22,804 nucleotides of DNA from a virus, in IMG/VR virus record IMGVR_UViG_3300024348_000267, positions 1-22,804 of that record; one strand, given 5' to 3'. Each line of letters opens with the position of its first letter. The first letter of the stretch is position 1. This document shows positions 912 through 19,897 of the stretch, in pieces. The position numbers were made by a program, and so were the translations under genes. Below the pieces are notes generated by a model. It saw nothing but the letters and a program-made list of their open reading frames with translations, was not told where the DNA came from and did not search any database.

Positions 912-2201
912 TTAAAATAATTTTAGCTTCTTAGCTAAGAGTCCTGCGCCTATAACCCAACCAATAGGATTAGAAGCAAGAGCACCCATCATTGCTGTTC
1001 CACCTGCGCCTAATGCGCTTGTTGCCGCACCTGTTTCAGCTATTGCGGCTCCTGTACCAGCTGCACTAGCTAAGCTTGAAGCACCTGCAGATCCACCAAG
1101 ACCACCTAAAGCCATATCAGCTGAAGCTAATTGAGAAGTGTTTAATGCAGCAGAGCTTAATGGTGCTGCTTTATAAGCGGCATAACCTGCATTAATACCT
1201 TTTTCAGCGGCATCAATTCCTTTACCCATAGCCATAGAAGCTAATTGTTGTTCTGTTTTATCAGGAACACGACCAAAAGCTTGCTCATTAGATGGTTTAA
1301 TTTCTGCGCCTAATGGTGCTGATACTGGCTGTGAAAGAGTCCATGACCAAGGATCATCCTCATTTACTTTTGTTGTACCCATTGCATAACCCTTTACTGA
1401 TGTTGTCCCATTAGACATTGCCATAGTTGCCATTGATTGATCATCAAAATATTTACCACCACCACTAATACCACCACCATAACTACTAAAGTCAGGAGTC
1501 ATAGGGTTATTATTTGATAAATACTTATCAAATTCTTCTGGTAATTCTTCTTGATTAGTTCTTAAACCTCTTGATGGACCAACATCTATAATAGAAGGGT
1601 CATCAAAAAACGATTTATCTTCTTTAGGCACTTCTGGAATATTGGGTATTTCAAGTGGTATCTCTGGAATAATTAAAGGTATATCTTGAACCTTTATAAC
1701 ACCATCATCAGGTATACTAGTAACAATAGGCTTAGTGTAAATATCAGGTATTGTTTCTAGTATATCACCATCAGGTATTAAAGGTATATCACTAGGTTTA
1801 ACTTCAGTTTCATCAGGTATACTAGTAACAATAGGCTTTGTATATATAGTTGGTATTGTTTCTAATATATCCCCTGGTGGTATTAAAGGTATATCACTAG
1901 GTTTAATTTCAGTCTCATCAGGAATATCACTAACAATTTTCTTAGTGTAAATACTGGGTTGTGTATCTGTATTAGTTACTGGTGTGTAATTAGGAGAAAC
2001 AAAGTTATCTCGAGTATCTATTACTTTTTCTTTAGAAATAGGACCAGTAGTTTTATTTAGATATGACTTACCATATATAATAGGTGTACGCATAGCTGTA
2101 AACAAGGGTCTACCGCTGGCGTCTACTGCAGAATAATCTACAGCATTTTTGTTTGATTGGCCTTCTTTAACGCTTGTTGGTTGACCTTGAGCACCAGCCA
2201 T
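912..2201 (-). CDS. Putative internal virion/ejection protein with three 35-aa repeats
   Basis: 429 aa. ATG at 2201 overlaps the upstream TAA (TAATG) and has a strong AGGAGG at 2208-2213. Residues 26-60 contain TPIIYGKSY, shared with the 93-aa protein just upstream. Residues 84-188 are three tandem repeats of about 35 aa with core IYTKPIVTSIPDETEVKPSD, rich in Pro, Ile and acidic residues. A Gly/Ser stretch (240-250) and two GTxxV motifs (265-279) follow. The C-terminus (340-429) is Ala/Gly-rich and ends in a hydrophobic segment NPIGWVIGAGLLAKK, suited to membrane contact. Composition and position before the large ejection-like gene suggest a virion protein released with the DNA. I do not recognise the family firmly. 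Confidence 0.7.
   Translation of the reverse strand: MAGAQGQPTSVKEGQSNKNAVDYSAVDASGRPLFTAMRTPIIYGKSYLNKTTGPISKEKVIDTRDNFVSPNYTPVTNTDTQPSIYTKKIVSDIPDETEIKPSDIPLIPPGDILETIPTIYTKPIVTSIPDETEVKPSDIPLIPDGDILETIPDIYTKPIVTSIPDDGVIKVQDIPLIIPEIPLEIPNIPEVPKEDKSFFDDPSIIDVGPSRGLRTNQEELPEEFDKYLSNNNPMTPDFSSYGGGISGGGKYFDDQSMATMAMSNGTTSVKGYAMGTTKVNEDDPWSWTLSQPVSAPLGAEIKPSNEQAFGRVPDKTEQQLASMAMGKGIDAAEKGINAGYAAYKAAPLSSAALNTSQLASADMALGGLGGSAGASSLASAAGTGAAIAETGAATSALGAGGTAMMGALASNPIGWVIGAGLLAKKLKLF
1638..1952 (-). repeat. Three 105-bp tandem repeats in the 429-aa gene
   Basis: The 105-nt unit encodes about 35 aa (core IPDETEVKPSDIPLIP). The first two copies are close to identical in protein; the third is diverged in its second half and lacks the DILETIP end. 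Copy number could vary by slippage or recombination between strains. Confidence 0.8.
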
Positions 2202-3863: not shown

Positions 3864-5711
3864 TTAACCTTTTAATCTTGTTTCTAATAATTCAATTTTG
3901 TCTGTAAGCTCTTGTATAGACTTAACTAACGGTGCAATTAAAGAAATATAATCTACTCCTTTAACGCCTTGTTCATTCTCTATTTTGAGAGAATCATTAT
4001 TATTGTTAATTAAACTTTCAACATCTTGAGCAATAAAACCATGTGATTTCCTTTTGTTGCCTATCATATTATAAGTAACTGGCTTTAAAGAATTAACAAA
4101 ATTTAAACCTAATGTTTCAGGTTGGATGTTTTCTTTTAAACGCCTATCTGATACCGGTTCTAAGTACATAAAGTTTGATGTACCACGAAATCGATATCCA
4201 GATATTAAACAATTAAAGTTCATACCTGCACCACCAGCATTACCTGTACCAGTATCTCCTACAAAAATCCTTGCCCAGTTTGAAGAATAAACACCGCCAA
4301 GAGCAACAGAGTCTGAAGCAATTGTAGCTGATCCTGCACTTGTAGCATAAGAAGCTGTGCTAGCTGATCCTGCACTTGTGGCATAAGAAGCGGTAGCCGC
4401 ATTACCTGTTGTGTTTTGGTTTAATGTTGGGAATGTACAATTAGAAAGATTACCACTTGATGGTGTACCTAATGCACTGCCTGATACGTAAAATGAGCTT
4501 GCTGTATATCCTTGCAAATAATTAGCATTAAGGTTTGGTACTTCAAAATTGTTGTTTATTGATGCTTTACCAAGAATATTTAAAGCAAGACCTAAAGCTG
4601 AACTATTAGATGCAATAATTCCTTGACCGTAACCGTCTGCAAATGCATAAACCCCAATACTTGCTGGTCCAGTAGAAGAAGCTTGTATACCAATTCCTCC
4701 TGCGCTTTCAGCTAAAATTGCTTTAGAAAAAATATCTCCACCTTTAGCGTACACACCTACTAAAGTTTGTGAGCCGTCAATAAGTGCAACAGTATTTTGA
4801 GCTACTGCACCTCCGTAAGTATAACCTAACCCAGATAATTTAAATTGACCTTCAGATTCAATGTTACCTGCAAAGGTAGCATTACCCGTTGTAGACTCAA
4901 TAGTAAAAGTGGTCTTAGCGTTTGTTCTACCTGTAATTCCTTTGCTTGTAAAAGCTACACCAGCTCCCGTAACATTACCTGAGCCATCAATAGCAATAGT
5001 ACCAGTCTTGAATCCACCAGCAGAATTAAATGTAATATCTCCGCTAAGAATATCAGAAGCACTTTTATTTAGTTTATTTGCTAAACCGCTTATTGCTGAG
5101 TTAGCAGTGCTTTGTGCGCTAACAGCAGTAGATTGAGCAGTATTAGCTGTGTCTTGAGCTGCAACAGCAGTAGATTGAGCTGTAGTAGCTGTTGATTGAG
5201 CTGTAGTAGCAGTAGACTGAGCTGCAGTAGCTGTTGATTGAGCTGCGGCTGCAGCAGCATTAGCCGTTGAAGCAGTAACAACATCAAGGTCAATAGCTGA
5301 CCCTGAGTCAACTACGTAAGAAGAACTTGGTGCAGAAGTAGCAACAGCAAACGTAATTTGCCGACCACCATTAACTAAATAATATAAAAACTTATTAGTA
5401 CTAAATCCACCAGAGGCTAAGTACCAAGTGTAGTCAGCAGGGTTAGTTGATTCTGTTGTTGATGCACTATTGTTAATTCCAAAGAAAAGTTTATTAGTAG
5501 GTGAGTTAGAAAGGTTAGTACCAATGTTGTCATCAGCATATTTAACTTGAATGTATTGATACAAGTAGTAAAGAATGTTCCCTGTGTTACCATCATAAAT
5601 CTTTCCTGTATTAGAGTCTACTAAGACTCCATTGTTAGCATCTGTCTCAAGAGCTAATTGAGCAAGATAAGCATCAAGCTCACTATTACCAGTAATAGGT
5701 GTATTAAACAT
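3864..5711 (-). CDS. Tail fibre/spike with C-terminal S74 intramolecular chaperone
   Basis: 615 aa. Residues 1-150 form an N-terminal domain that I recognise from many phage tail proteins (YIQVKYADDNIGTNL; NPADYTWYL; GGRQITFAV), probably for virion attachment. Residues 155-205 are heptad-like AQSTATA repeats, likely a trimeric stalk. Residues 220-430 are beta-rich, and 437-465 carry a 12-aa repeat around ATSAGSASTASY. From residue 521, SDRRLKENI opens a Peptidase_S74 chaperone domain, which in endosialidases drives trimerisation and then cuts itself off at Ser-Asp. The Ser521/Lys526 pair fits the catalytic dyad of the family. A C-terminal coiled coil (VKSIQELTDKIELLETRLK) follows. AGGAGA in the previous gene's last codons serves as RBS. 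The S74 call is firm; the receptor is unknown. Confidence 0.88.
   Translation of the reverse strand: MFNTPITGNSELDAYLAQLALETDANNGVLVDSNTGKIYDGNTGNILYYLYQYIQVKYADDNIGTNLSNSPTNKLFFGINNSASTTESTNPADYTWYLASGGFSTNKFLYYLVNGGRQITFAVATSAPSSSYVVDSGSAIDLDVVTASTANAAAAAAQSTATAAQSTATTAQSTATTAQSTAVAAQDTANTAQSTAVSAQSTANSAISGLANKLNKSASDILSGDITFNSAGGFKTGTIAIDGSGNVTGAGVAFTSKGITGRTNAKTTFTIESTTGNATFAGNIESEGQFKLSGLGYTYGGAVAQNTVALIDGSQTLVGVYAKGGDIFSKAILAESAGGIGIQASSTGPASIGVYAFADGYGQGIIASNSSALGLALNILGKASINNNFEVPNLNANYLQGYTASSFYVSGSALGTPSSGNLSNCTFPTLNQNTTGNAATASYATSAGSASTASYATSAGSATIASDSVALGGVYSSNWARIFVGDTGTGNAGGAGMNFNCLISGYRFRGTSNFMYLEPVSDRRLKENIQPETLGLNFVNSLKPVTYNMIGNKRKSHGFIAQDVESLINNNNDSLKIENEQGVKGVDYISLIAPLVKSIQELTDKIELLETRLKG
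4325..4391 (-). repeat. 31-bp direct repeat in the S74 fibre gene
   Basis: Two copies at 4325-4355 and 4361-4391 with one mismatch, period 36 nt, encoding the 12-aa unit ATSAGSASTASY just before the S74 region. Probably a local stalk duplication. Confidence 0.75.
5096..5249 (-). repeat. 21-bp repeats encoding AQSTATA heptads in the S74 fibre
   Basis: About seven units of 21 nt give AQSTATA-type heptads (residues 155-205). The Gln/Ser/Thr/Ala pattern with 7-residue period suggests a trimeric coiled-coil stalk. The same kind of A/S/T stalk, with another unit, is found in giant fibre 1. Confidence 0.8.
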
Positions 5712-9081: not shown

Positions 9082-9384
9082 TTAAGCACTCCAAGGAAGA
9101 GGTGCTGGCTGTGGTGTAGGCACATTAGCTTGTGCAATAAGAAGATCAACTTCATTTTGCATAGCATTAACACGGTTTTCACCCAAGGCACTCTTAGTCC
9201 AAGCCAAAGCTTGTTCTTGAGTGATCTCATTAAATGGGGTGAAGTCATCAGGGTTTGCTGGTAGGAGGTTAACAGAGTAGTTAACCTGTTGACCATCTTT
9301 AGCAATAGTAAAGTTAGACATCACTACTGTTTGTGGTTCAGGTTCATTCATAACCTGTAAAGAATTTACTGTCCAATTATACAT
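9082..9384 (-). CDS. Small phage protein of unknown function ending in PLPW motif
   Basis: 100 aa. The start is set by AGGAGA at 9391-9396, 6 nt before ATG 9384, giving MYNWTVNSLQVMNEP. An in-frame start further upstream would overlap most of the preceding gene. Features are a beta-type N-terminal half, DDFTPFNEITQEQALAWTKS, a helix (RVNAMQNEVDLLIAQ) and a proline-rich end APLPWSA. This order (W.V..L, F.PF..(I/L)T.E....W, ..PLPW) resembles a small family common downstream of tail-fibre genes in cyanophages and other phages. Its function is unknown; a role in tail-fibre assembly is a guess from position. The first bases overlap the end of the 50-aa gene. Confidence 0.7.
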   Translation of the reverse strand: MYNWTVNSLQVMNEPEPQTVVMSNFTIAKDGQQVNYSVNLLPANPDDFTPFNEITQEQALAWTKSALGENRVNAMQNEVDLLIAQANVPTPQPAPLPWSA

Positions 9385-9529
9385 CAACGATCTCCTGATT
9401 TTTAGGTGTTTGTTCTTGCACTTGACGGGCAATCTCATTCATAACAAGGAAAGCACCTGTCTTAGTAGGTAGTTCTCCGAGTACTTGTTGAATAAAGTTT
9501 ACTGTGTTATCGTCTAATTCTAGTTTCAT
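9377..9529 (-). CDS. 50-aa conserved-looking phage micro-protein
   Basis: ATG 9529 to TAA 9377, with a weak CAGGAC about 5 nt upstream. It begins MKLELDDNTVNFIQQVLGEL, continues with PTKTGAFLVMNEIARQVQEQ and ends TPKNQEIVDV. It is probably a compact helical protein. The L.LD..TVNFI...LG.LPT.TGA....EI..Q pattern is one I have met in small genes just after tail fibres in many phages; I know of no assigned function. Its last codons contain the RBS of the 100-aa gene, and the two genes overlap by 8 nt, so they are likely translated together. Confidence 0.65.
   Translation of the reverse strand: MKLELDDNTVNFIQQVLGELPTKTGAFLVMNEIARQVQEQTPKNQEIVDV
9391..9396 (-). promoter_or_regulatory. Ribosome binding site fixing the start of the 100-aa gene
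   Basis: AGGAGA on the minus strand, 6 nt before ATG 9384, embedded in the end of the 50-aa gene. Confidence 0.7.
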
Positions 9530-9541
9530 ATATGTCCTGTA

Positions 9542-9811
9542 TTATACGTCTGTTGCACCAGCGTATTGAGTAAATGTTTTTAGTACACCATATATAGCAG
9601 GGATCAAGTCGCCTGACAGATCTTCCATGTTAATATAGTGGGCTTGTTGTTGAATAGAAGGCCAACCCGCTTTACGAGCTTCCTCTGTTGCGTGAATCTC
9701 AACTTGAACTTGAAGTTGATCCTTAGTACCAAAGAAGTTTGTGATCCTAGCGTAAGCTTGTACCTCAGATTGTCCATTGGTATTGTTTGTTGCTGTAATT
9801 TGTAATGCCAT
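9542..9811 (-). CDS. Small phage protein downstream of fibre genes
   Basis: 89 aa. ATG at 9811 preceded by AAGGAGC, 10 nt after the stop of the second giant fibre gene. A beta-rich first half (MALQITATNNTNGQSEVQAY; ARITNFFGTKDQLQVQVEIH) is followed by a helical segment (SGDLIPAIYGVLKTFTQY). No TM, signal or catalytic motif. Similar small genes follow tail fibres in other aquatic phages. It may be a fibre chaperone or minor tail component; that is inference from position. Composition returns here from the Gly/Ser/Thr-rich fibre to ordinary soluble protein. Confidence 0.65.
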   Translation of the reverse strand: MALQITATNNTNGQSEVQAYARITNFFGTKDQLQVQVEIHATEEARKAGWPSIQQQAHYINMEDLSGDLIPAIYGVLKTFTQYAGATDV

Positions 9812-9821
9812 ATATAGCTCC

Positions 9822-11342
9822 TTAATAAGTCATTTCGGTTGTGCGGATTTGGGCAACAGTCCTAATTGTAGTACTCGCTTGCCCTGTGAAAGTTACTGCC
9901 AACCCGCCATTGGTAGTGTCTGCTGTTACTGCTATCACCCAAGTGGATGCCCCTGCATCTGCGTATGTTGAGGTGACTGTTGGTGTTCCTACTAGGGCTG
10001 TAGAAGCGGCATTAGCACCACGCTTGATAACACCCTCAATAGTCCATCCTTTTGTGTTACCACCGCCTGTTACACCTGATACTACTTCTCCTGTAAAGAA
10101 ATAGGCTGAGTTGTTGGGCAAAATTACTTGGTTGGTTCCAGATGCGGCTGAGGTATCTGAACGTAAAACTGTAGCGGTTGCGTTTGTGGTTTCAATTCCA
10201 AGAACAAGCAATGCGGATTGGCTTACACCATATGCTCCTGCAATTGGTACACTTCCATAGGCAAACGAATTGACAATGCTTCGTGTTGTTCCATAAGCAC
10301 CAGAGGCTACTGCGTAATTTGAACTTGCTATGTTACTATTTCCGCCAATAACCGATGCTCCATATCCACTAGCAATATTATTAAAACCAGCGCCAACAAA
10401 TGCCGCTTGTCCTGAAGCAAGATTTGCCGCAAATTGTCCTTGTTGAATACTTCCATACAAGCCTCCGCCTACAACAGCAGAACCTAATCCACTTGCTGTA
10501 TTTCCATAGCCACCGCCTACAAAAGATGCTTCTTGTGATGCGGAGTTTTTCATACCACCCACAACACTAGCCCACGCACCACTAGCAACATTCCTGTTAC
10601 CAGCCGTTCCAGCATCACCACCACCGCCAATAAAGGAATATGAACCAGTGGCGGTGTTGTTTCCTCCTCCTACTACGATTCCGTGAGGGGTGTAAAAACT
10701 GAGTGTGCTAGTTGATGAGCCTGATGCTACTTGGCTAAGTGTGAGTGATGTGCCAGATATGGCGGCAACGTAGGTGTACGGGGATGTATTGATACTTGTG
10801 CCAGTAATTAACTGACCAACTTTAATAGATGCGTTTGAGCCACTTAATGTAACGGCTGTTGTGCCGTTCATAGTTCCGCTTTGAGTTGTTACCGCAGAAC
10901 CACTTGTTCCTGAGTTGGTAAATCCACCACCTATAAAGTTGTGATAACCAGCGGCAGTATTTGCTTGGCCTCCAGCAACTGTGGCAACGTCTCTGCTACC
11001 TGCTGTATTTGATATACCACCGCCAACAAAACTTAAATATCCTGAAGCAGTATTTGCTTGTCCACCAGCAACAATAGCAACAAGATTATTTGATGTATTT
11101 CCTAACCCAGAACAAACTGCCGAATAGGTGTTTGTTGCAGAATTAACACCGCCTCCACCTACAACTGCATAAAGTCCAGAAGCAGTATTTGTTTGACCGC
11201 CCGCTACAACAGAATAACCTGCACTTGCAACATTACCAGCGTTCGCCCTAGCAGTCTGCCAATCCACCGCATTAGCACCCCTAGCATTACCCCCTGTTGC
11301 TGTGGAATCTGTTTGTTGAGCCTGTAGCGCACCAGTACCTTT
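9822..11342 (-). repeat. Paralogous C-terminal copy, fibre 2 (partner 13189-14598)
   Basis: Counterpart of the fibre 1 C-terminal region, in direct orientation, about 3.3 kb away. It differs by more YadA-like units in front of and behind the inserted domain and by a diverged segment around residues 960-985. Confidence 0.85.
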
Positions 11343-13160
11343 TGGTTGTAGGACTAGGGGGATGTTTGTGTCTGAGCCAAGGGATTGAATAAGAGGGGCA
11401 GTACCAGTAGCACCACCTATTACTCTTACATAATTTACTACCGAAGCCGCTCCACCAACTACAAATGGATAACCAGAATTAGTTAAAACTACAAAGTCAC
11501 CTGAACCTTTTGTAGCCAATATAAAGTTGATACTAGAGTCACTACCTTGCGCAGATATAGTAGGTGAGTTTCCTGTGCTTGACCCCGTTACTTGTACATA
11601 GTTAACAGCAGAGGCTGTGTGGGCTACTGCCGCTTGAGTAGTGCCACCACCATTAGTTCTAAAAAAGACAGTTCCTGTACCATTTGAACCAAGCGAAAGA
11701 TTTGCGTTTGTACTACCTTGAGCAACAATGTAGGGGGTAGTTCCACCACTCAACTGAACAAAACCAGTGCCTGATGAATCAGCAACACGCACCATTTCAC
11801 CAGTGCCTGTATTAAATTTATGCGACCCAGTACCCTTGGTAGTGACATTCAAGTCAATATTTGTATCACTTCCCTGTACGCTTATCGTTGGCCCTGAGCC
11901 TGTAGCCGCACCTGTTGCTTGGACGTAATTGACTGCGGATGCTGTGTGGGTGACTGCAAATTGTGTAAACGCTGTTGAAGCTGTTTGCACAGCAATGGTA
12001 TTAGAACCACCTGCCGTAATAACAGTACTACCGCTTGATCCATAAATTGATCTGTTATATTGATCTCCGCTAATTATGGCGTAAGCATTAGGCGCAGTGG
12101 TTGAACCTGACCCAACTGCTAAGTGTGTTCCATAACTATTGTTGACTTTTAAATAACCAGTACCTTTGGTAAGCAGGTTTAAATCTACATTTGTATCACT
12201 GCCTTGACCACTAAGAGTTGGCCCTGTACCTGTAACCCCACCTGTAGCCAAAACAAAGTTAACAGCAGACGCAGTATGGTTTGCCCTTAATACTTCAGAA
12301 GCAAACGCATTTGTTTGCAAACTTAGGTAACCCGTGCCTTTAGATGTAATGATTCCATTATTGTTTGTTGTAGCCCCTGCAACACGCAAGCCAACTGACC
12401 CTGTTGAACCAATAGCTTCCCAATAATCAACTGTTGGTCTATTTGTATCGGCTACAGAAAATGCTACACCGCCCGCAGTCGCAAGTTGCAATGAGGCAAC
12501 ATTTGACGCTAAAGCCTTTATAGTGGCTATTCCACCAATACCTGCATAAGCAGTAGCACCAGAGCCACCACCCCCGCTAAAGGTTATTGTTGGTTGTTCT
12601 ACATAGCCACTACCTGCGTTGGTAATGGTAAATGTTCCGCCAGCGGCGTAAAACAAACTTGTGAGCGTAAGACCTGTTCCTGTGCCACCGGTAGTGGATA
12701 CAGGAGCAGTTGGCAGTACCAAGTATGGTGCATAATTTACTGCCGTAACAGCCGTAACTACGCCACCAGAAACCGCACTTACTCTAAAAGTTGCCGCAAC
12801 AGTTTGCGGAGTACCGCCAACCCATGAAACAACATCATTCAACGTGTACCCAGTGCCGCCAGATTGAACTGACGCAGTAATTGGCTGCATTACCAACACT
12901 GTTGCAGTAGCTTGAACACCACCCGCCGTGGTTGGAGGGGAAATGGTAATTGTCGGAAACCCCGTGTAACCCCCACTACCGCCTCCGTTATTTGTCAACG
13001 TAATAGCAGTAACAGTCCCGCCATTACTCAGGTTAAGCCCACCAGAGCCAGCCGCTACGTTAAACGCACCTGTGCCTTTAGGATTAACAGTCAACGATGC
13101 GTTAGTCGCAGTATCAGTTACTGTGATTTGTTCCGTTACGTGGTCAAGATTTATAGCCAT
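9822..13160 (-). CDS. Giant fibre/adhesin 2 with YadA-head-like beta-roll
   Basis: 1112 aa. ATG at 13160 with AAGGAGG 7 nt upstream. Residues 1-40 already look like the fibre repeat (VTDTATNASLTVNPKGTGAF). Residues 45-220 carry GGSGGYTGFPTITISPP-like units, three times GxGYxxxPTIT or variants. Residues 290-610 hold four copies of the TASAVNYVQVTGAATG / QGSDTNIDLNLTTKGTG repeat. Residues 645-955 are YadA-head-like units ((V/F)VGGGxxNTASGxYS), probably a trimeric left-handed beta-roll, interrupted by an inserted domain at 748-826. Residues 960-1112 form a C-terminal domain ending RTTEMTY, matching fibre 1. No enzyme motif and no typical anchor at the N-terminus. Likely a receptor-binding fibre; exact role inferred. 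Confidence 0.85.
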   Translation of the reverse strand: MAINLDHVTEQITVTDTATNASLTVNPKGTGAFNVAAGSGGLNLSNGGTVTAITLTNNGGGSGGYTGFPTITISPPTTAGGVQATATVLVMQPITASVQSGGTGYTLNDVVSWVGGTPQTVAATFRVSAVSGGVVTAVTAVNYAPYLVLPTAPVSTTGGTGTGLTLTSLFYAAGGTFTITNAGSGYVEQPTITFSGGGGSGATAYAGIGGIATIKALASNVASLQLATAGGVAFSVADTNRPTVDYWEAIGSTGSVGLRVAGATTNNNGIITSKGTGYLSLQTNAFASEVLRANHTASAVNFVLATGGVTGTGPTLSGQGSDTNVDLNLLTKGTGYLKVNNSYGTHLAVGSGSTTAPNAYAIISGDQYNRSIYGSSGSTVITAGGSNTIAVQTASTAFTQFAVTHTASAVNYVQATGAATGSGPTISVQGSDTNIDLNVTTKGTGSHKFNTGTGEMVRVADSSGTGFVQLSGGTTPYIVAQGSTNANLSLGSNGTGTVFFRTNGGGTTQAAVAHTASAVNYVQVTGSSTGNSPTISAQGSDSSINFILATKGSGDFVVLTNSGYPFVVGGAASVVNYVRVIGGATGTAPLIQSLGSDTNIPLVLQPKGTGALQAQQTDSTATGGNARGANAVDWQTARANAGNVASAGYSVVAGGQTNTASGLYAVVGGGGVNSATNTYSAVCSGLGNTSNNLVAIVAGGQANTASGYLSFVGGGISNTAGSRDVATVAGGQANTAAGYHNFIGGGFTNSGTSGSAVTTQSGTMNGTTAVTLSGSNASIKVGQLITGTSINTSPYTYVAAISGTSLTLSQVASGSSTSTLSFYTPHGIVVGGGNNTATGSYSFIGGGGDAGTAGNRNVASGAWASVVGGMKNSASQEASFVGGGYGNTASGLGSAVVGGGLYGSIQQGQFAANLASGQAAFVGAGFNNIASGYGASVIGGNSNIASSNYAVASGAYGTTRSIVNSFAYGSVPIAGAYGVSQSALLVLGIETTNATATVLRSDTSAASGTNQVILPNNSAYFFTGEVVSGVTGGGNTKGWTIEGVIKRGANAASTALVGTPTVTSTYADAGASTWVIAVTADTTNGGLAVTFTGQASTTIRTVAQIRTTEMTY

Positions 13161-13167
13161 ATAATGA

Positions 13168-13174
13168 CCTCCTT
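13168..13174 (-). promoter_or_regulatory. Strong ribosome binding site of fibre 2
   Basis: AAGGAGG on the minus strand, 7 nt before ATG 13160, in the 28-nt gap between the two giant fibre genes. It shows that fibre 2 is a separately initiated protein and not a read-through product of fibre 1. Confidence 0.75.
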
Positions 13175-13188
13175 ATAATAATTATTCA

Positions 13189-14598
13189 TTAATATGTTAC
13201 CTCAGTTGTTTCTAATTTTGCCACCCATCGTATAGTTGTAGATGCCGCACCCGTGACAGTCACAGCAAGTCCACCATTCGTAGTGTCAGCAGTTAAAGCG
13301 ATAGCCCACGCAGTAGCCCCTGCTGTTGCCGCCACTCGGTTAATTGCGGGTGTTCCTATCAGCACAGTCGATGCCGCATTAGCACCTCGCATGATTGCAC
13401 CTTCAAAAGACCATGAAGCACCATTAGCCGCAGCTGTTACGTTAGCAATGACAGAGCCTTTGAAATAGTATGCTGAGTTGTTGGGTAGGATAATCTGGTT
13501 TGTTGTTCCTGCCGCCCCGCCTTCAGACGTTAAAACAGTTGCTGTTGCATCTGTGGTTTGTTTACCAAGCACAAGCATTGCCGCCTGTGAACCATATGCA
13601 GTTGGTGTTGGAACATAGCACGCAGAAAAAGCAATATATCCAGTTATTCCTCTTGTGGTCGCATAATTTCCAATAGCAGTTGAATACGAGCTTGTAGTTT
13701 GATTTCCTACACCACCAATAATTGATGCGCCGTTTCCAACTGATAGATTTCCCCAACCACCGCCAACAAAAGAGCCTACGCCACTTGCTGTTTGAGCGGA
13801 TAGACCAGAACCATAAGTTCCACCCCCAACAACAATGGCACCAGTATTACTTGCAGTATTTTTTATTCCACCACCAACAAACGACCAATCCCCACTAGCC
13901 ACATTACGATTAGCCGCAGTCCCTGCATCGCCCCCGCCCAAAATAACGCTGTATGCACCTGTGGCCTGATTGTTACCACCGCCTACTACTACTCCGTGAG
14001 GGGTGAAAAAGAATAGGGTTGATGTGGATGAACCGCTTGCTACCTTAGACAGTGTGAGTGATGTGCCACTGATAGCGGCTACATAGGTGTCTGAGGCTAT
14101 GGAAGTGCCTGCAATGTACTGACCAACTTTGATATTTGCGTTACTACCAGACAGCGTGACTGCCGTGGTTGCGTTCATTGTCCCCGATTGGGTAGTTACC
14201 GCAGAACCACTTGTGCCTGAGTTGGTAAAGCCACCACCGATATAATTTAATACACCTGCTGAAGTATTTGCTTGACCACCAATAACTACTGACCTTTCAC
14301 CAGATACAGTATTTCCATAACCACCACCAGAAAAAGAATAGATGCCTGTTGCTGAATTTACAAAGCCACCAACAATAGCACCACCATAAGCAGAGTTGCT
14401 ATTTTGATAGCCTGAACCAATAAAGCCATAAATACCCGAATTTATATTATTAAATCCACCACCAATAACAGAATTTTGTCCACTTGCTACATTAGCCGCT
14501 GAAGCCCTTTGAGTCTGCCAATCAACAGCATTAGCCCCCCTAGCATTACCACCAGTAGCAGATGATGTAGTGGCTTGGGCTTGTAATGCACCAGTACC
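13189..14598 (-). repeat. Paralogous C-terminal copy, fibre 1 (partner 9822-11342)
   Basis: Residues 1113-1581 of fibre 1 align over the whole length with residues 607-1112 of fibre 2, beginning at GTGALQAQ, through GGNARGANAVDWQT, the beta-roll, the inserted domain and the final NGGLAVT(V/F)TG. Some DNA runs are nearly identical, others clearly diverged. The fibre 2 copy has several extra beta-roll units. Confidence 0.85.
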
Positions 14599-17500
14599 AG
14601 CAGGGGATACATACAGAGAACCATCAGACTGTAATCCAATAGTTGATACACCTGAAAAGGATAGGGTAGGAGTTCCGTAAACTGCTGTTGTGGTTGTGGG
14701 GATGTAGGTATTGGCAGTTGAGCCAATTTCTAATTGTGCCCCATAAATAAACGTATTGACAAAACCGCTAGTATTTGCATCTGAAACATATACAATTAAA
14801 TCATTTACTGATGGTGTAAACGTTACAGAATACCTTGTCCAAGTGGTTGTGGCAGTAATAGTTCCATAAATTGTTCCAATGTTATTGCTTGCAATTAGTA
14901 AATTTCTTGTACCAGAAGCAACCCTTACCCAAATACTTGCCGTATATGTGATACCTGCAATACACGTATATAACCTCTCAACTAAAGCCTGATATTGTGT
15001 ATTGTATGAAAGTAAAGTTGCATTTGAGCCACCAAAAGGGTCTGTTTGACCTGTTGTCAATGGCAATGAAAGTACGTTAGTCCATCCAGTAGTATTGTTA
15101 AAAGTATTTGAGTAAACAATTAAATTCTGCCCAGTACCCTTCAAAACTTCTGTCTGAGCAGTAAGCGTCGTAAACACACCCGTAGCAGGGGTTGTTGCGC
15201 CAATAGGCGTGTTGTCTATTGACGTAGCCGCAAATGGCCCGTTGGCTCTGACAGTACCTGTTCCCTTTGGTGTTAGGGTTAGGTCTATGTTTGTGTCTGT
15301 ACCTACGGCTGATACTTGTGGGCCAGAGCCAGTAGCCGCCCCCGTTACCTGAACGTAATTGACTGCAGAGGTTGTTGGTGTTACTTGAAACTGATTTGCA
15401 CCCGCAGAGTTCCTAAATGTTGATGCCCCGTTACCAGTAATATCCCAACCGCCATTACCTTTGGCAAGTAATGTTCCAAAAACAGAAGCATCACTACCTT
15501 GAGTTGAAATAGTTACGTTAGCACCAGTAGCCGCCCCCGTTACCTGAACATAGTTAACAGCAGAGGCTGTGTGGGCTACTTTTAACTGTTGTGTAAAACT
15601 TGTTCCAGCAGTATAAAAATCATGCCCACCTGTGCCTTGCGTTGAATAACTCATCCCAAGGTTTGTATCGCTTCCCCTAGATGCAATAACAGGTAGAAAT
15701 CCAGTTGCTTGTCCTTGTAGGTGAATACGATTAACAGCAGTACCGCCGCTATCAATAATTCTTACTTGCGTTCCAGCACCTGTGTTTAAGTTAACAACAC
15801 CAGTACCCTTGGTAGTCAGGTTTAGGTCTATGTTTGTGTCTGAGCCTTGAGCAAACAAGCGAGGCCCTGAACCCGTAACACTACCAGTAGCCGTTAATCT
15901 GTTGACTGTAGATGATGTGTTTTCAACAGAGAATAAATTGTTAGCCGCATTGTTTTGAAAGTAAACACCGCCATCACCTTTCCATACCGAACCACCGCCA
16001 CCTTTACTTACAAGGCTAATTCCAGTGCTTGCATCAGTACCTTGCGCTGAAATTTGAACATTGCCGCCAGTGGTTGCTCCTGTCAGTTGAACATAATTAA
16101 CTGCTGATGCTGTGGGAGAAACAACTGCTTGAATTGCATTGTTAGCAGTAAATATATGACCGCCACTTGTTCCCTTGGATAAAAAGTTTAAGTCAACATT
16201 ATCATCACTTCCTTGCCCACTAATAGTTGGTCTTCCACCAGTAGCCGCACCAGTCACCTGAACGTAATTGACTGCTGATGCGGTGTGGGAGACAGCCATT
16301 TGCAATGTACCAGCCGCACCAGCCGATGCAAAGTTATGTGCGCCTGTCCCTTTGCTAACCCAAGTAATGCCTACGTTAGTTGCCGCACCATTTGCATAAG
16401 TTCTAGTTGCAGATGCAATTTCATTGCTAATGTTTAAATAGCCAGAAGTTGCACTTGCACCATCTGTAATTCTTAACGCTTCTCCAGTTGTATTTGTAAA
16501 AGATTGTGATGCTCCAATAGTTCTAACAGTTGGAGTTGTTACAGTAGTAAAAGTACCAGCCGCAGGGGTTGTCGCTCCAACTGTTGTGCCGTTAATCGTG
16601 CCGCCTGTGATGGCTACGCTAGTGGCGTTTTGGGTTGACATCGTACCCAAGCCAGTAATATCACCACTAGGAATGGTTGCAGACGCTGTTAATGGGGTTG
16701 TACCGCTTCCCTTGACGTAGCCTGTTAGGGTAGATGCGCCTGTACCGCCATCAGCAACTGCAAGGTCTGTAATGCCTGTGATTGAACCACCAGTAATTGC
16801 TACATTGTTTGCACCTTGTGTAGCAATAGAACCTAATCCAAGATTAGTTCTTGAAGTAGCTACATCAGCAACATCTGAAAGATTATTAGCAGACATCAAT
16901 GCACCAGCTGCAGACACATATGCCGCAACCCACCCTGTAGATGTATACACCTTCATCACATTAGATACTGTATTAAAGTACAATGCACCAGTAATCAAGG
17001 GATTACCGTCATTATCTACTGTAGGATCACTTGCTTTAGGACCCAAATATCTGTCATCAAAATTATCAAATGCCGCAAGAGCCGCATCCTTAGCCGCAAC
17101 AGCAGTTGCCGCTGATGCACTTGCATTAGACGCACTTGTAGACGCACCAGAGGCAGAAGCCGCAGACTGCACTGCATATGCCTGTGAATCAATCGCTGAA
17201 AGGTTAGCACTACCGCTATAGCTTAAAGCACTGTTCTTATACCCTTCAGCTTGTGAAGCTGATGTAGCCGCATTTGAAGCAGAGATACCCGCAGACGTAG
17301 CTGAGGTACCCGCAGTTGTTGCACTGGCAAAAGCTAAGTTAGCCTGTGTAGTCGCTGTGTTAGCTGAAGATAAAGCACTGCTAGCTGAATTACTTGCGTT
17401 AGTCGCTGAAGTAGATGCGTTAGATGCTGAAGTAGAAGCGTTAGACGCAGACGTACTTGCACTAGTAGCACTTGCTAAAGCCTCAGCCGCCTTTGTTGTT

Positions 17501-17934
17501 GCTACACCAGACGCAGATGTTGCAGTGGTAGCTGAATTAGTTGCAGATGTTGCCGCATTAGTTGCCGTTGTTGCCGCAGATGTTGCTGTTGAAGCTGAAG
17601 CTGTAGCAGAGTTTGCTGAAGTTAAAGCATTTGCTTCACTTGTGTCTGCACCTGCAGCACTTGCAGCAGCAGCATCCGCACTGAGTTTAGCTTCAGCTGC
17701 TTTTTGAGCCGCTAATTGCTCATAAGAAAAAGAATCAGAAGTACCTGCATCTTCAAAAGCACCACCTACTGCGGCAGTACTTGTAACACCTGAGTTATAT
17801 TGATACCCACCTGTTGTGTTAGATGTAGTTGGATATACTACAGGATATGAAGAAATACCCGAAGATACACTGCTTTCAAATTCTCCACCTTCTGATTGAG
17901 AAGTAGTACTCCCCGGTTTTTGTTCATATGCCAT
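13189..17934 (-). CDS. Giant fibre/adhesin 1 with coiled-coil stalk, CBM-like domain and YadA-like beta-roll
   Basis: 1581 aa. ATG at 17934 with AAGGAG upstream. Domains: residues 1-75, a Ser/Gly/Thr-rich head with GGEFE and GGAFE; 76-290, an Ala/Ser/Thr stalk (TSASNAS-type repeats, likely coiled coil); 291-345, the common tail-fibre module DDRYLGPKASDPTV...GALYFNT...GWV; 390-465, GGTGAS-type linker; 480-900, about six copies of the TASAVNYVQVTGAATG / QGSDTNIDLNLTTKGTG repeat; 930-1085, a jelly-roll domain resembling carbohydrate-binding modules, closing in QLEIGSTANTYIPT; 1150-1430, YadA-head-like VGGGxxNTASG units with an inserted domain at 1236-1315; 1435-1581, C-terminal domain ending LETTEVTY. 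Probably the main receptor-binding fibre, anchored by its N-terminus. Fibre identity is firm, ligand unknown. Confidence 0.88.
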   Translation of the reverse strand: MAYEQKPGSTTSQSEGGEFESSVSSGISSYPVVYPTTSNTTGGYQYNSGVTSTAAVGGAFEDAGTSDSFSYEQLAAQKAAEAKLSADAAAASAAGADTSEANALTSANSATASASTATSAATTATNAATSATNSATTATSASGVATTKAAEALASATSASTSASNASTSASNASTSATNASNSASSALSSANTATTQANLAFASATTAGTSATSAGISASNAATSASQAEGYKNSALSYSGSANLSAIDSQAYAVQSAASASGASTSASNASASAATAVAAKDAALAAFDNFDDRYLGPKASDPTVDNDGNPLITGALYFNTVSNVMKVYTSTGWVAAYVSAAGALMSANNLSDVADVATSRTNLGLGSIATQGANNVAITGGSITGITDLAVADGGTGASTLTGYVKGSGTTPLTASATIPSGDITGLGTMSTQNATSVAITGGTINGTTVGATTPAAGTFTTVTTPTVRTIGASQSFTNTTGEALRITDGASATSGYLNISNEIASATRTYANGAATNVGITWVSKGTGAHNFASAGAAGTLQMAVSHTASAVNYVQVTGAATGGRPTISGQGSDDNVDLNFLSKGTSGGHIFTANNAIQAVVSPTASAVNYVQLTGATTGGNVQISAQGTDASTGISLVSKGGGGSVWKGDGGVYFQNNAANNLFSVENTSSTVNRLTATGSVTGSGPRLFAQGSDTNIDLNLTTKGTGVVNLNTGAGTQVRIIDSGGTAVNRIHLQGQATGFLPVIASRGSDTNLGMSYSTQGTGGHDFYTAGTSFTQQLKVAHTASAVNYVQVTGAATGANVTISTQGSDASVFGTLLAKGNGGWDITGNGASTFRNSAGANQFQVTPTTSAVNYVQVTGAATGSGPQVSAVGTDTNIDLTLTPKGTGTVRANGPFAATSIDNTPIGATTPATGVFTTLTAQTEVLKGTGQNLIVYSNTFNNTTGWTNVLSLPLTTGQTDPFGGSNATLLSYNTQYQALVERLYTCIAGITYTASIWVRVASGTRNLLIASNNIGTIYGTITATTTWTRYSVTFTPSVNDLIVYVSDANTSGFVNTFIYGAQLEIGSTANTYIPTTTTAVYGTPTLSFSGVSTIGLQSDGSLYVSPAGTGALQAQATTSSATGGNARGANAVDWQTQRASAANVASGQNSVIGGGFNNINSGIYGFIGSGYQNSNSAYGGAIVGGFVNSATGIYSFSGGGYGNTVSGERSVVIGGQANTSAGVLNYIGGGFTNSGTSGSAVTTQSGTMNATTAVTLSGSNANIKVGQYIAGTSIASDTYVAAISGTSLTLSKVASGSSTSTLFFFTPHGVVVGGGNNQATGAYSVILGGGDAGTAANRNVASGDWSFVGGGIKNTASNTGAIVVGGGTYGSGLSAQTASGVGSFVGGGWGNLSVGNGASIIGGVGNQTTSSYSTAIGNYATTRGITGYIAFSACYVPTPTAYGSQAAMLVLGKQTTDATATVLTSEGGAAGTTNQIILPNNSAYYFKGSVIANVTAAANGASWSFEGAIMRGANAASTVLIGTPAINRVAATAGATAWAIALTADTTNGGLAVTVTGAASTTIRWVAKLETTEVTY
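17065..17709 (-). repeat. Ala/Ser/Thr low-complexity stalk repeats in fibre 1
   Basis: Codes residues 76-290 of fibre 1 with short units such as STSASNA and TSATNAA, almost only Ala, Ser, Thr and Asn, with few charged residues. DNA is a series of imperfect 12-21-nt repeats. Because of this, long reading frames without stops also occur on the opposite strand; they are not genes. Confidence 0.75.
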
Positions 17935-19513: not shown

Positions 19514-19897
19514 TTATATTAGGTCTGAAAAGTGTCTGATCCTATGACAATTAGCACATAGTAAAACACATTTATCAAGTTCTTGTTTTGCTTTTTCATT
19601 TAGGGAAATAGTATCCCGTAGGAAATGAGCAGGTTCTTTGTTTGCTTTTGTAGACGGGTCTGTGTGATGAAATTCAAATGCAGCCTGATGTACTACTGAT
19701 AAACAGTCATTACATTTACCGCCTTTATAAACAATAGCTTCAGCTTTTAAACTTCTAGATTTTTCTTTTCGAAAAATAGACCTACATTCTTTACAATCAC
19801 AATTGTATTTAATACCACTCTTTTTAAGTTTTGTTAGTACAGAAAATTCTGATACCGCTTTGACTTGATTACAAGTCCTACAAGTTTTTGTTTCCAT
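19514..19897 (-). CDS. Free-standing HNH endonuclease
   Basis: 127 aa. A first zinc-binding pair CxxC at Cys6/Cys9 with CxxC at Cys35/Cys38 (CDCKEC), then the HNH core: CNDC (62/65), FEFHHTDP with the catalytic-type His77/His78, and LLCANCHRIRH (Cys114, Cys117, Asn116, His118, His122). This is the four-Cys zinc-supported HNH type frequent as free-standing homing endonucleases in phage genomes. ATG at 19897 has AAGGAA about 6 nt upstream. It lies directly behind a terminator that follows the capsid gene, so it would be expressed by read-through or from an unseen promoter. Very Lys-rich, unlike its structural neighbours. Probably a mobile insertion; a packaging-associated role is less likely here. 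Confidence 0.88.
   Translation of the reverse strand: METKTCRTCNQVKAVSEFSVLTKLKKSGIKYNCDCKECRSIFRKEKSRSLKAEAIVYKGGKCNDCLSVVHQAAFEFHHTDPSTKANKEPAHFLRDTISLNEKAKQELDKCVLLCANCHRIRHFSDLI

What the first reader, a model, noticed from the sequence alone, without database searches (positions are those of the whole stretch)
9822..17934. Tandem pair of giant YadA-like fibre genes filling more than a third of the window
Two neighbouring genes of 1581 and 1112 aa share their last 470-510 residues, built of VGGGxxNTASGxYS units like the head repeats of trimeric autotransporter adhesins such as YadA. A podovirus with two adhesin-like fibres plus a third S74 fibre could carry alternative receptor specificities or a branched fibre. 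The repeat likeness is seen in the sequence; structure and role are inferred.
Basis: partly seen in the sequence, partly recalled or inferred. Interest (0 to 1): 0.65.

Follow-up and report, generated by a model that had tools for sequence, protein, structure and literature searches.

The report
Two-part phage fibre with matched couplers
Two neighbouring giant phage genes each encode a fibre ending in a YadA-like adhesin head, and comparison with hundreds of uncultured phages suggests they are not alternative fibres but two sections of one: the first section's end domain belongs to a special class that is always followed by a second gene starting with a short conserved 'plug'.

Summary
F1 (1581 aa) and F2 (1112 aa) share 59% identity over their last ~490-520 residues. 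The shared part is a YadA/UspA1-type beta-roll head (profile vs UspA1 3pr7 E=2.4e-18; 3ntn superposes at 1.4 A), split by an inserted beta domain and followed by a separate ~133-aa C-terminal domain (CTD).

The reading as alternative fibres is weaker than a serial one. Across relatives from unrelated phages the CTD falls into classes fixed by position. All 39 unique class A/A' CTDs (F1 type) are followed by a gene whose product starts with a conserved N-terminal cap (F2 type), none by g9811. Of 103 class B CTDs with room, 102 are followed by g9811, an 89-aa gene found here at 9542-9811. Conversely, 27 of 27 cap-bearing genes have class A upstream. Second genes lack the phage-specific N-termini of first and single genes.

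Best explanation: F1 is anchored to the virion, F2 plugs onto F1's CTD, and CTD-B with g9811 ends the fibre. Docking is inferred; linkage and orthogonal trimerisation stay open. Multi-part fibres and YadA heads in phages are known; I found no report of the coupler rule.

The parts
13189..17934 (-). F1, 1581-aa fibre: N-terminus + Ala-rich coiled coil + stalk repeats + YadA-like head + class A CTD
   Evidence: (N-terminal part matches PHROG tail-fibre family phrog_38058, E=1.6e-33)
17065..17934 (-). F1 residues 1-290: N-terminus shared with the sister phage L247 and Ala/Thr/Ser-rich 7-residue-periodic stretch (presumed virion anchor and coiled coil)
   Evidence: 21-bp tandem repeats at 17254-17591; 96% aa identity with L247 over F1 1-463, dN/dS 0.15; only 2 near-full matches in viral contigs
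14665..16437 (-). F1 ~500-1090: stalk repeats (TASAVNYVQVTG...SDTNIDLxLxxKGTG) and a possible carbohydrate-binding-like segment (905-1090; inference, no Pfam hit)
   Evidence: sequence read directly; similarity to F2 stalk repeats
13591..14595 (-). F1 YadA/UspA1-like head (residues ~1114-1448)
13192..13590 (-). F1 C-terminal domain, class A (residues 1449-1581), proposed joint
   Evidence: CTD tree: all 15 first-position CTDs in one 100/99-supported group; 39/39 class A/A' followed by N-cap gene
13161..13188 (-). 28-nt gap between F1 stop and F2 start with Shine-Dalgarno sequence (aaggaggtcattatATG)
9822..13160 (-). F2, 1112-aa second fibre: N-cap + stalk repeats + YadA-like head + class B CTD
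13065..13160 (-). F2 N-cap (residues 1-32, MAINLDHVTEQITVTDTATNASLTVNPKGTGA), proposed plug
   Evidence: alignment A4; 20/22 second genes, 0/49 class B singles, 0/24 class A first genes
10224..11336 (-). F2 YadA/UspA1-like head (residues ~609-979), including an inserted beta domain (~756-825; window 10686-10895)
9825..10223 (-). F2 C-terminal domain, class B (residues 980-1112), proposed tip
9542..9811 (-). g9811, 89-aa protein (phrog_18037) that follows the last fibre gene; proposed tip cap or assembly chaperone
   Evidence: identical protein in sister phage with 5 synonymous changes only
9082..9438 (-). DUF7936 protein (PF25590, E=1.9e-10), whose relatives sit next to g9811 in other phages

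Best explanation
F1 and F2 are two sections of one long receptor-binding fibre joined end to end. F1's phage-specific N-terminus attaches to the virion. Its stalk and YadA-like head lead to a class A C-terminal domain that serves as a joint. F2 has no virion anchor of its own; its conserved ~30-residue N-terminal cap docks onto CTD-A, and its own stalk and head lead to a class B C-terminal domain that ends the fibre together with the small protein g9811 (tip cap or folding helper). Shown: the domain architecture, the position-fixed CTD classes, the cap, the pairing rule in both directions, and replacement of the interiors of both genes between sister phages with ends kept. Inferred: that the proteins trimerise, that cap and CTD-A bind each other, that both are in the virion, and what g9811 does.
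For: (1) CTD tree: every first-position CTD falls in one group (100/99), last and single CTDs in another and intermixed. (2) 39/39 unique class A/A' CTDs (21 clusters at 90% identity; 24 not used in training the class models, 13 clusters) are followed by an N-cap gene, 0 by g9811; 102 of 103 class B with room are followed by g9811, 0 by N-cap. (3) Converse: all 27 loci found by scanning for the cap have class A directly upstream. (4) Second genes lack the N-termini of first genes; single class B genes carry the same kinds of N-termini as first genes, so the anchor cannot be what recruits F2. (5) The pairing holds on nine unrelated sets of upstream genes. (6) Type matching: CTD-A' is followed by a different cap (MTINFND...), and a triplet runs A -> cap/A' -> cap'/B. 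(7) In L261 the second gene has the cap but no YadA head and a different tip, yet still follows CTD-A, so CTD-A pairs with the cap and not with the head. L332 looks the same, but its upstream CTD is only a fragment that leans to class A (65 vs 52 bits). (8) In most pairs the junction is 2-4 nt, which fits translational coupling of partners. (9) Precedent: in Klebsiella phages a second receptor-binding protein without anchor is thought to dock by a 7-29-residue conserved N-terminal peptide (PMC6872550).
Against: No structure or binding data. Cap and CTD-A are physically adjacent in the genome, so they may simply be inherited as one junction; close linkage would give the same statistics without contact. 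Residues ~14-31 of the cap resemble an ordinary stalk repeat, so only ~12 residues are cap-specific. L281 has an intermediate CTD followed by a cap gene, and L291 has an intermediate CTD followed by g9811 and then another cap gene. Sequences are related; counts are not independent events.
Confidence: 0.5

Rival explanations
1. Two separate homotrimeric fibres per virion (alternative receptors); CTD-A and CTD-B diverged so that the two homologous chains, made in one cell, do not form mixed trimers (orthogonal trimerisation). F2 attaches by its cap to some other virion part.
For: Explains why no tandem A-A or B-B pair was seen and why a triplet has three different CTD types. Sixteen class-diagnostic positions, including loss of charged residues in class A. 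C-terminal trimerisation domains are common in fibres (general knowledge).
Against: Does not explain why A is always first and why only cap genes follow it, nor why class A persists in L261, whose second gene has no CTD-B. The cap is shared by nine unrelated sets of upstream genes, so a common docking partner other than F1 would have to exist in all of them.
Confidence: 0.2
2. Branched fibre: F2 docks by its cap at a side site of F1 (as proposed for Klebsiella KP32/KP34-like and G7C-like systems), so both heads are exposed tips.
For: Known principle: anchorless second receptor-binding protein with a short conserved N-terminal peptide (PMC6872550).
Against: The element peculiar to first genes across unrelated phages is the CTD class, at the end of F1, not a branch domain near the anchor; first genes and single genes share the same kinds of N-termini. 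No T4gp10-like domain hit in F1.
Confidence: 0.15
3. Junction linkage only: the stretch CTD-A stop / cap start is one cassette spread by recombination, with no contact between the two proteins.
For: The two elements are usually 2-4 nt apart; fibre loci here are highly recombinogenic.
Against: Cap and CTD-A are diverse (caps down to ~51% identity) and the pair stays intact even where a ~670-nt HNH endonuclease insert separates them. CTD-A and CTD-B are ~60% identical, so recombination should often produce CTD-A-last genes; none of 39 is seen.
Confidence: 0.1
4. F2 is a spare, undisplayed tip cassette (or the two chains form mixed trimers through their heads).
For: Some second genes are little more than head plus CTD (488-523 aa). 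L094 has a single gene joining the anchor of the tandem lineage to a class B CTD identical to theirs, as recombination between copies would produce.
Against: Good ribosome-binding site and low dN/dS in the F2 cap (0.23, on only 32 codons) and CTD (0.16). Mixed trimers: head lengths differ in 18 of 18 pairs and L261's second gene has no head.
Confidence: 0.05

Closest known systems
UspA1 / YadA head domain of trimeric autotransporter adhesins (PDB 3pr7, 3ntn; PF05658, PF18792)
   Same: Repeat sequence and beta-roll fold of the head
   Different: No membrane anchor or autotransporter domain; head is split by an inserted beta domain and followed by a phage-type CTD
YadA-domain tail fibres of marine phages (pelagiphage-like C24 cluster in PMC3909814; cyanophage S-SZBM1 and others in PMC9146016)
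   Same: YadA-like adhesin domain at or near the end of a phage fibre, in a variable region; YadA-domain protein detected in virions of S-SZBM1
   Different: Single genes in those reports as far as read; no CTD class or cap described in the passages read
Anchor-branch receptor-binding protein systems of Klebsiella phages (KP32, KP34, Menlow groups; PMC6872550)
   Same: First protein with anchor, second without anchor but with a short conserved N-terminal peptide; single-gene and two-gene variants among relatives
   Different: Docking site there is a T4gp10-like domain near the first protein's anchor; here the partner appears to be the C-terminal domain; no depolymerase domain found
T4 long tail fibre (gp34-gp35-gp36-gp37 with gp38/gp57A), from general knowledge
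   Same: Fibre made of several trimeric sections joined end to end, tip gene followed by a small tip/assembly gene
   Different: No sequence relation tested or seen; T4 sections are not homologous tandem copies with YadA heads
Roseobacter phage CRP-7 (MK613349)
   Same: Closest isolate by major capsid protein (52%); same order capsid - two small genes - adaptor-position gene - long tail structural gene
   Different: One long gene (gp51, 3501 nt) at the F1 position, followed by two small genes; no YadA-type match there

Membership tests
YadA/UspA1-type head domain | Head repeat sequence | tested here: met
   phmmer 3pr7 E=9e-9; profile E=2.4e-18; Pfam YadA_head only in 1 of 73 relatives, UspA1_rep weakly in 15
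YadA/UspA1-type head domain | Left-handed parallel beta-roll fold | tested here: met
   AlphaFold2 model, head blocks mostly pLDDT 79-93 in the first half; Foldseek best hit UspA1, 3ntn 1.4 A over 105 columns. Handedness taken from the match, not measured
YadA/UspA1-type head domain | Homotrimer | not testable with these tools
   Only monomer prediction offered
Trimeric autotransporter adhesin (type Vc secretion) | C-terminal membrane-anchor beta-barrel and signal peptide | tested here: not met
   No Pfam match in F1 or F2; C-terminus is a soluble-looking beta domain; genes sit in a phage structural module. Signal peptide not tested. Not a TAA
Two-part docked receptor-binding protein system (Klebsiella KP32/KP34 principle) | Second protein lacks the anchor and carries a short conserved N-terminal peptide | tested here: met
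Two-part docked receptor-binding protein system (Klebsiella KP32/KP34 principle) | T4gp10-like branching domain in the first protein | tested here: not met
   No Pfam match of any kind in F1; profile-profile search not available. Works like it, but not filed as a member
CRP-7-like podoviruses | Capsid gene similarity and gene order | tested here: met
   52%; order. Short tail known for CRP-7 (PMC6918029), not for this phage

The most novel reading that the evidence does not exclude
Phages of fresh and marine waters build fibres of variable number of sections by a portable coupler code: a C-terminal domain class (A, A', B) on each section specifies which N-terminal cap (or the terminator protein g9811) may follow, so sections can be added, removed or swapped between unrelated phages.
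Probability: 0.3. Interest if true: 0.75.

Novelty: new variant of a known kind. Interest (0 to 1): 0.5.

Why it matters
If right, it gives a simple sequence rule for reading how many sections a phage fibre has and which gene is the distal, host-contacting one, in a large group of uncultured aquatic phages that public phage records barely cover (two partial F2 matches and no g9811 match in 50,697 records). It would also explain how unrelated phages exchange host-recognition parts while keeping the assembly workable, and it names a small protein family (g9811) as a candidate fibre-tip or assembly factor that can be tested.

Tried and rejected
Recent duplication of one gene into two: rejected as recent, because F1 and F2 share only 59% and each CTD groups with its positional class in other phages, not with its neighbour. 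Trimeric autotransporter of the host: rejected, the genes lie between phage adaptor and lysis genes. Strict pairing of g9811 with CTD-B: first suggested, then weakened, because L326, L344, L357, L261 and L332 have g9811 after fibres with a different tip; it follows the last fibre gene more generally. Mixed trimers of F1 and F2: disfavoured. Fold of g9811: no PDB match (best E 0.17), only uncharacterised viral proteins. CTD alone against PDB: no credible sequence match. Host: bacterial genome scan gave only 16 weak hits (36-56% over the best segment), mainly Acetobacteraceae, so no host can be named. Searching the annotated phage records with CTD alone failed on a coordinate slip and was not repeated.

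Full report
1. Observation. The window is a 22.8-kb virus fragment. F1 (13189..17934, -) and F2 (9822..13160, -) are present as described. BLASTP aligns F1 1096-1581 to F2 591-1112 at 59% identity (E=9e-151). The shared part has three pieces: a YadA/UspA1-like repeat head, a ~70-aa beta domain inserted in it, and a ~133-aa C-terminal domain (CTD). The head matches UspA1 by sequence and by fold. Upstream of the head both proteins carry another repeat (TASAVNYVQVTG...SDTNIDLxLxxKGTG), read directly from the sequence.

2. Setting. The capsid protein is 52% identical to that of the podovirus CRP-7 (short tail per PMC6918029), and 482 stretches of IMG/VR encode relatives. Gene order is capsid, small genes, SU10-type adaptor (PF24175), fibre cassette, small genes, lysozyme, an S74 fibre. 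The cassette is hypervariable: phages with 98% identical capsid proteins carry unrelated fibres. A sister phage (L167/L247, 94-96% identical DNA in flanks) keeps F1 1-463, both CTDs and g9811 but has different interiors in both F1 and F2; it too is a tandem pair (1829 + 790 aa).

3. The CTD classes. A scan with the F2 head+CTD found 421 relatives, 80 kept. Of 83 contigs, 19 held two or three such genes. A tree of the CTD put all 15 first-position CTDs in one group with two singles (support 100/99), while last and single CTDs were intermixed in the other (133 columns only, many forks unresolved). Sixteen positions distinguish the classes; class A has lost charged residues that class B keeps.

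4. The cap. Second genes all begin with one of a few related ~30-residue sequences. First and single genes have phage-specific N-termini of the same kinds as each other. In unique genes: cap in 0/24 class A first genes, 20/22 class B second genes, 0/49 class B single genes. The two second genes without it have a variant cap, which turned out to follow CTD-A'.

5. The rule tested. Scans with CTD-A, g9811, the cap and CTD-A' gave a pooled table of 188 unique CTD ends: class A/A' 39/39 followed by a cap gene, 0 by g9811; class B 102 of 103 with room followed by g9811, 0 by a cap; intermediate CTDs 32 followed by g9811, 1 by a cap, 9 by neither. The 39 reduce to 21 clusters at 90% identity; 24 were not in the training set of the class models. 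All 27 loci from the cap scan have class A upstream. The pairs lie behind nine unrelated upstream genes. Five class A genes are separated from the cap gene by an insert; where read, it encodes an HNH endonuclease.

6. Discriminating cases. L261's second gene has the cap but neither YadA head nor CTD-B, and still follows CTD-A; this argues against mixed trimers and for CTD-A/cap pairing. L332 is similar, but its upstream CTD is a short fragment only leaning to class A. Head lengths differ in 18 of 18 pairs. L155 has a triplet with A, A', B in order and caps to match. L094 has a single gene with the anchor of a tandem lineage and a CTD-B identical to theirs.

7. g9811. This 89-aa gene (phrog_18037) follows the last fibre gene and is not seen between tandem fibre genes (0 of 21). 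It is preceded by a CTD in 65 of 69 hits with room in its own scan, one of these class A at long range (L381, the same contig as L261), and follows other tips in a few phages. It is predicted with fair confidence as beta-beta-beta-alpha-beta-alpha (pLDDT 87), without PDB match but with many uncharacterised viral matches. Role as tip cap or folding helper is a guess from position.

8. Mechanism. The simplest account of points 3-6 is a fibre built of sections in series, with CTD-A as joint and the cap as plug, ended by CTD-B and g9811. The main alternatives are orthogonal trimerisation of separate fibres, side-branching, and mere linkage of adjacent sequences; none is excluded without structural or binding data.

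9. Novelty. YadA-like domains in phage fibres (PMC3909814; PMC9146016) and docking of anchorless second receptor-binding proteins by short N-terminal peptides (PMC6872550) are known. Five paper searches showed no report of position-fixed CTD classes paired with caps; only open-licence papers were searched.

Noticed in passing
L105 6237-6917; L258 6403-7068; L115 7368-7999; L383 3303-3992: HNH endonuclease ORFs inserted right after the CTD; their last residues (TVELVY, TTEMTY) resemble the CTD's own end, as if the insert re-creates the 3' end of the fibre gene. May promote exchange of fibre ends.
   Followed up: partly
window 19514-19897: HNH endonuclease (PF01844, E=0.0023, below Pfam's cut-off) between the capsid gene and the next small gene; present in some close relatives and absent from others.
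   Followed up: no
L155 2763-9395; L269, L270: Triplet of tandem fibre genes with CTD classes A, A', B in order.
   Followed up: yes
L291 1-6931: Order CTD-A gene, cap gene with intermediate CTD, g9811, then another cap gene: does not fit the simple rule.
   Followed up: partly
L292-L311 group (e.g. L310 4469-5767): Short fibres (432-447 aa, starting MQSYYDVVTDSGNRPIAGAQVFVYN) with head+CTD but no g9811 downstream.
   Followed up: no
L398, L400, L402, L403, L405-L411: Distant head/CTD relatives in Acetobacteraceae genomes (Roseococcus, Belnapia, Siccirubricoccus and others); could be prophage or tailocin fibres.
   Followed up: no
window 1705-1953: 2.4 copies of a 105-bp (35-aa) repeat in the 429-aa protein at 912-2201.
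   Followed up: no
window 9082-9438: DUF7936 protein (PF25590) beside g9811; relatives lie between the last fibre gene and g9811 in L344, L357, L261 and L332.
   Followed up: partly
window 5121-5246: Ala/Thr-rich 7-residue repeats in the S74 fibre (TAAQSTA), a likely coiled coil.
   Followed up: no
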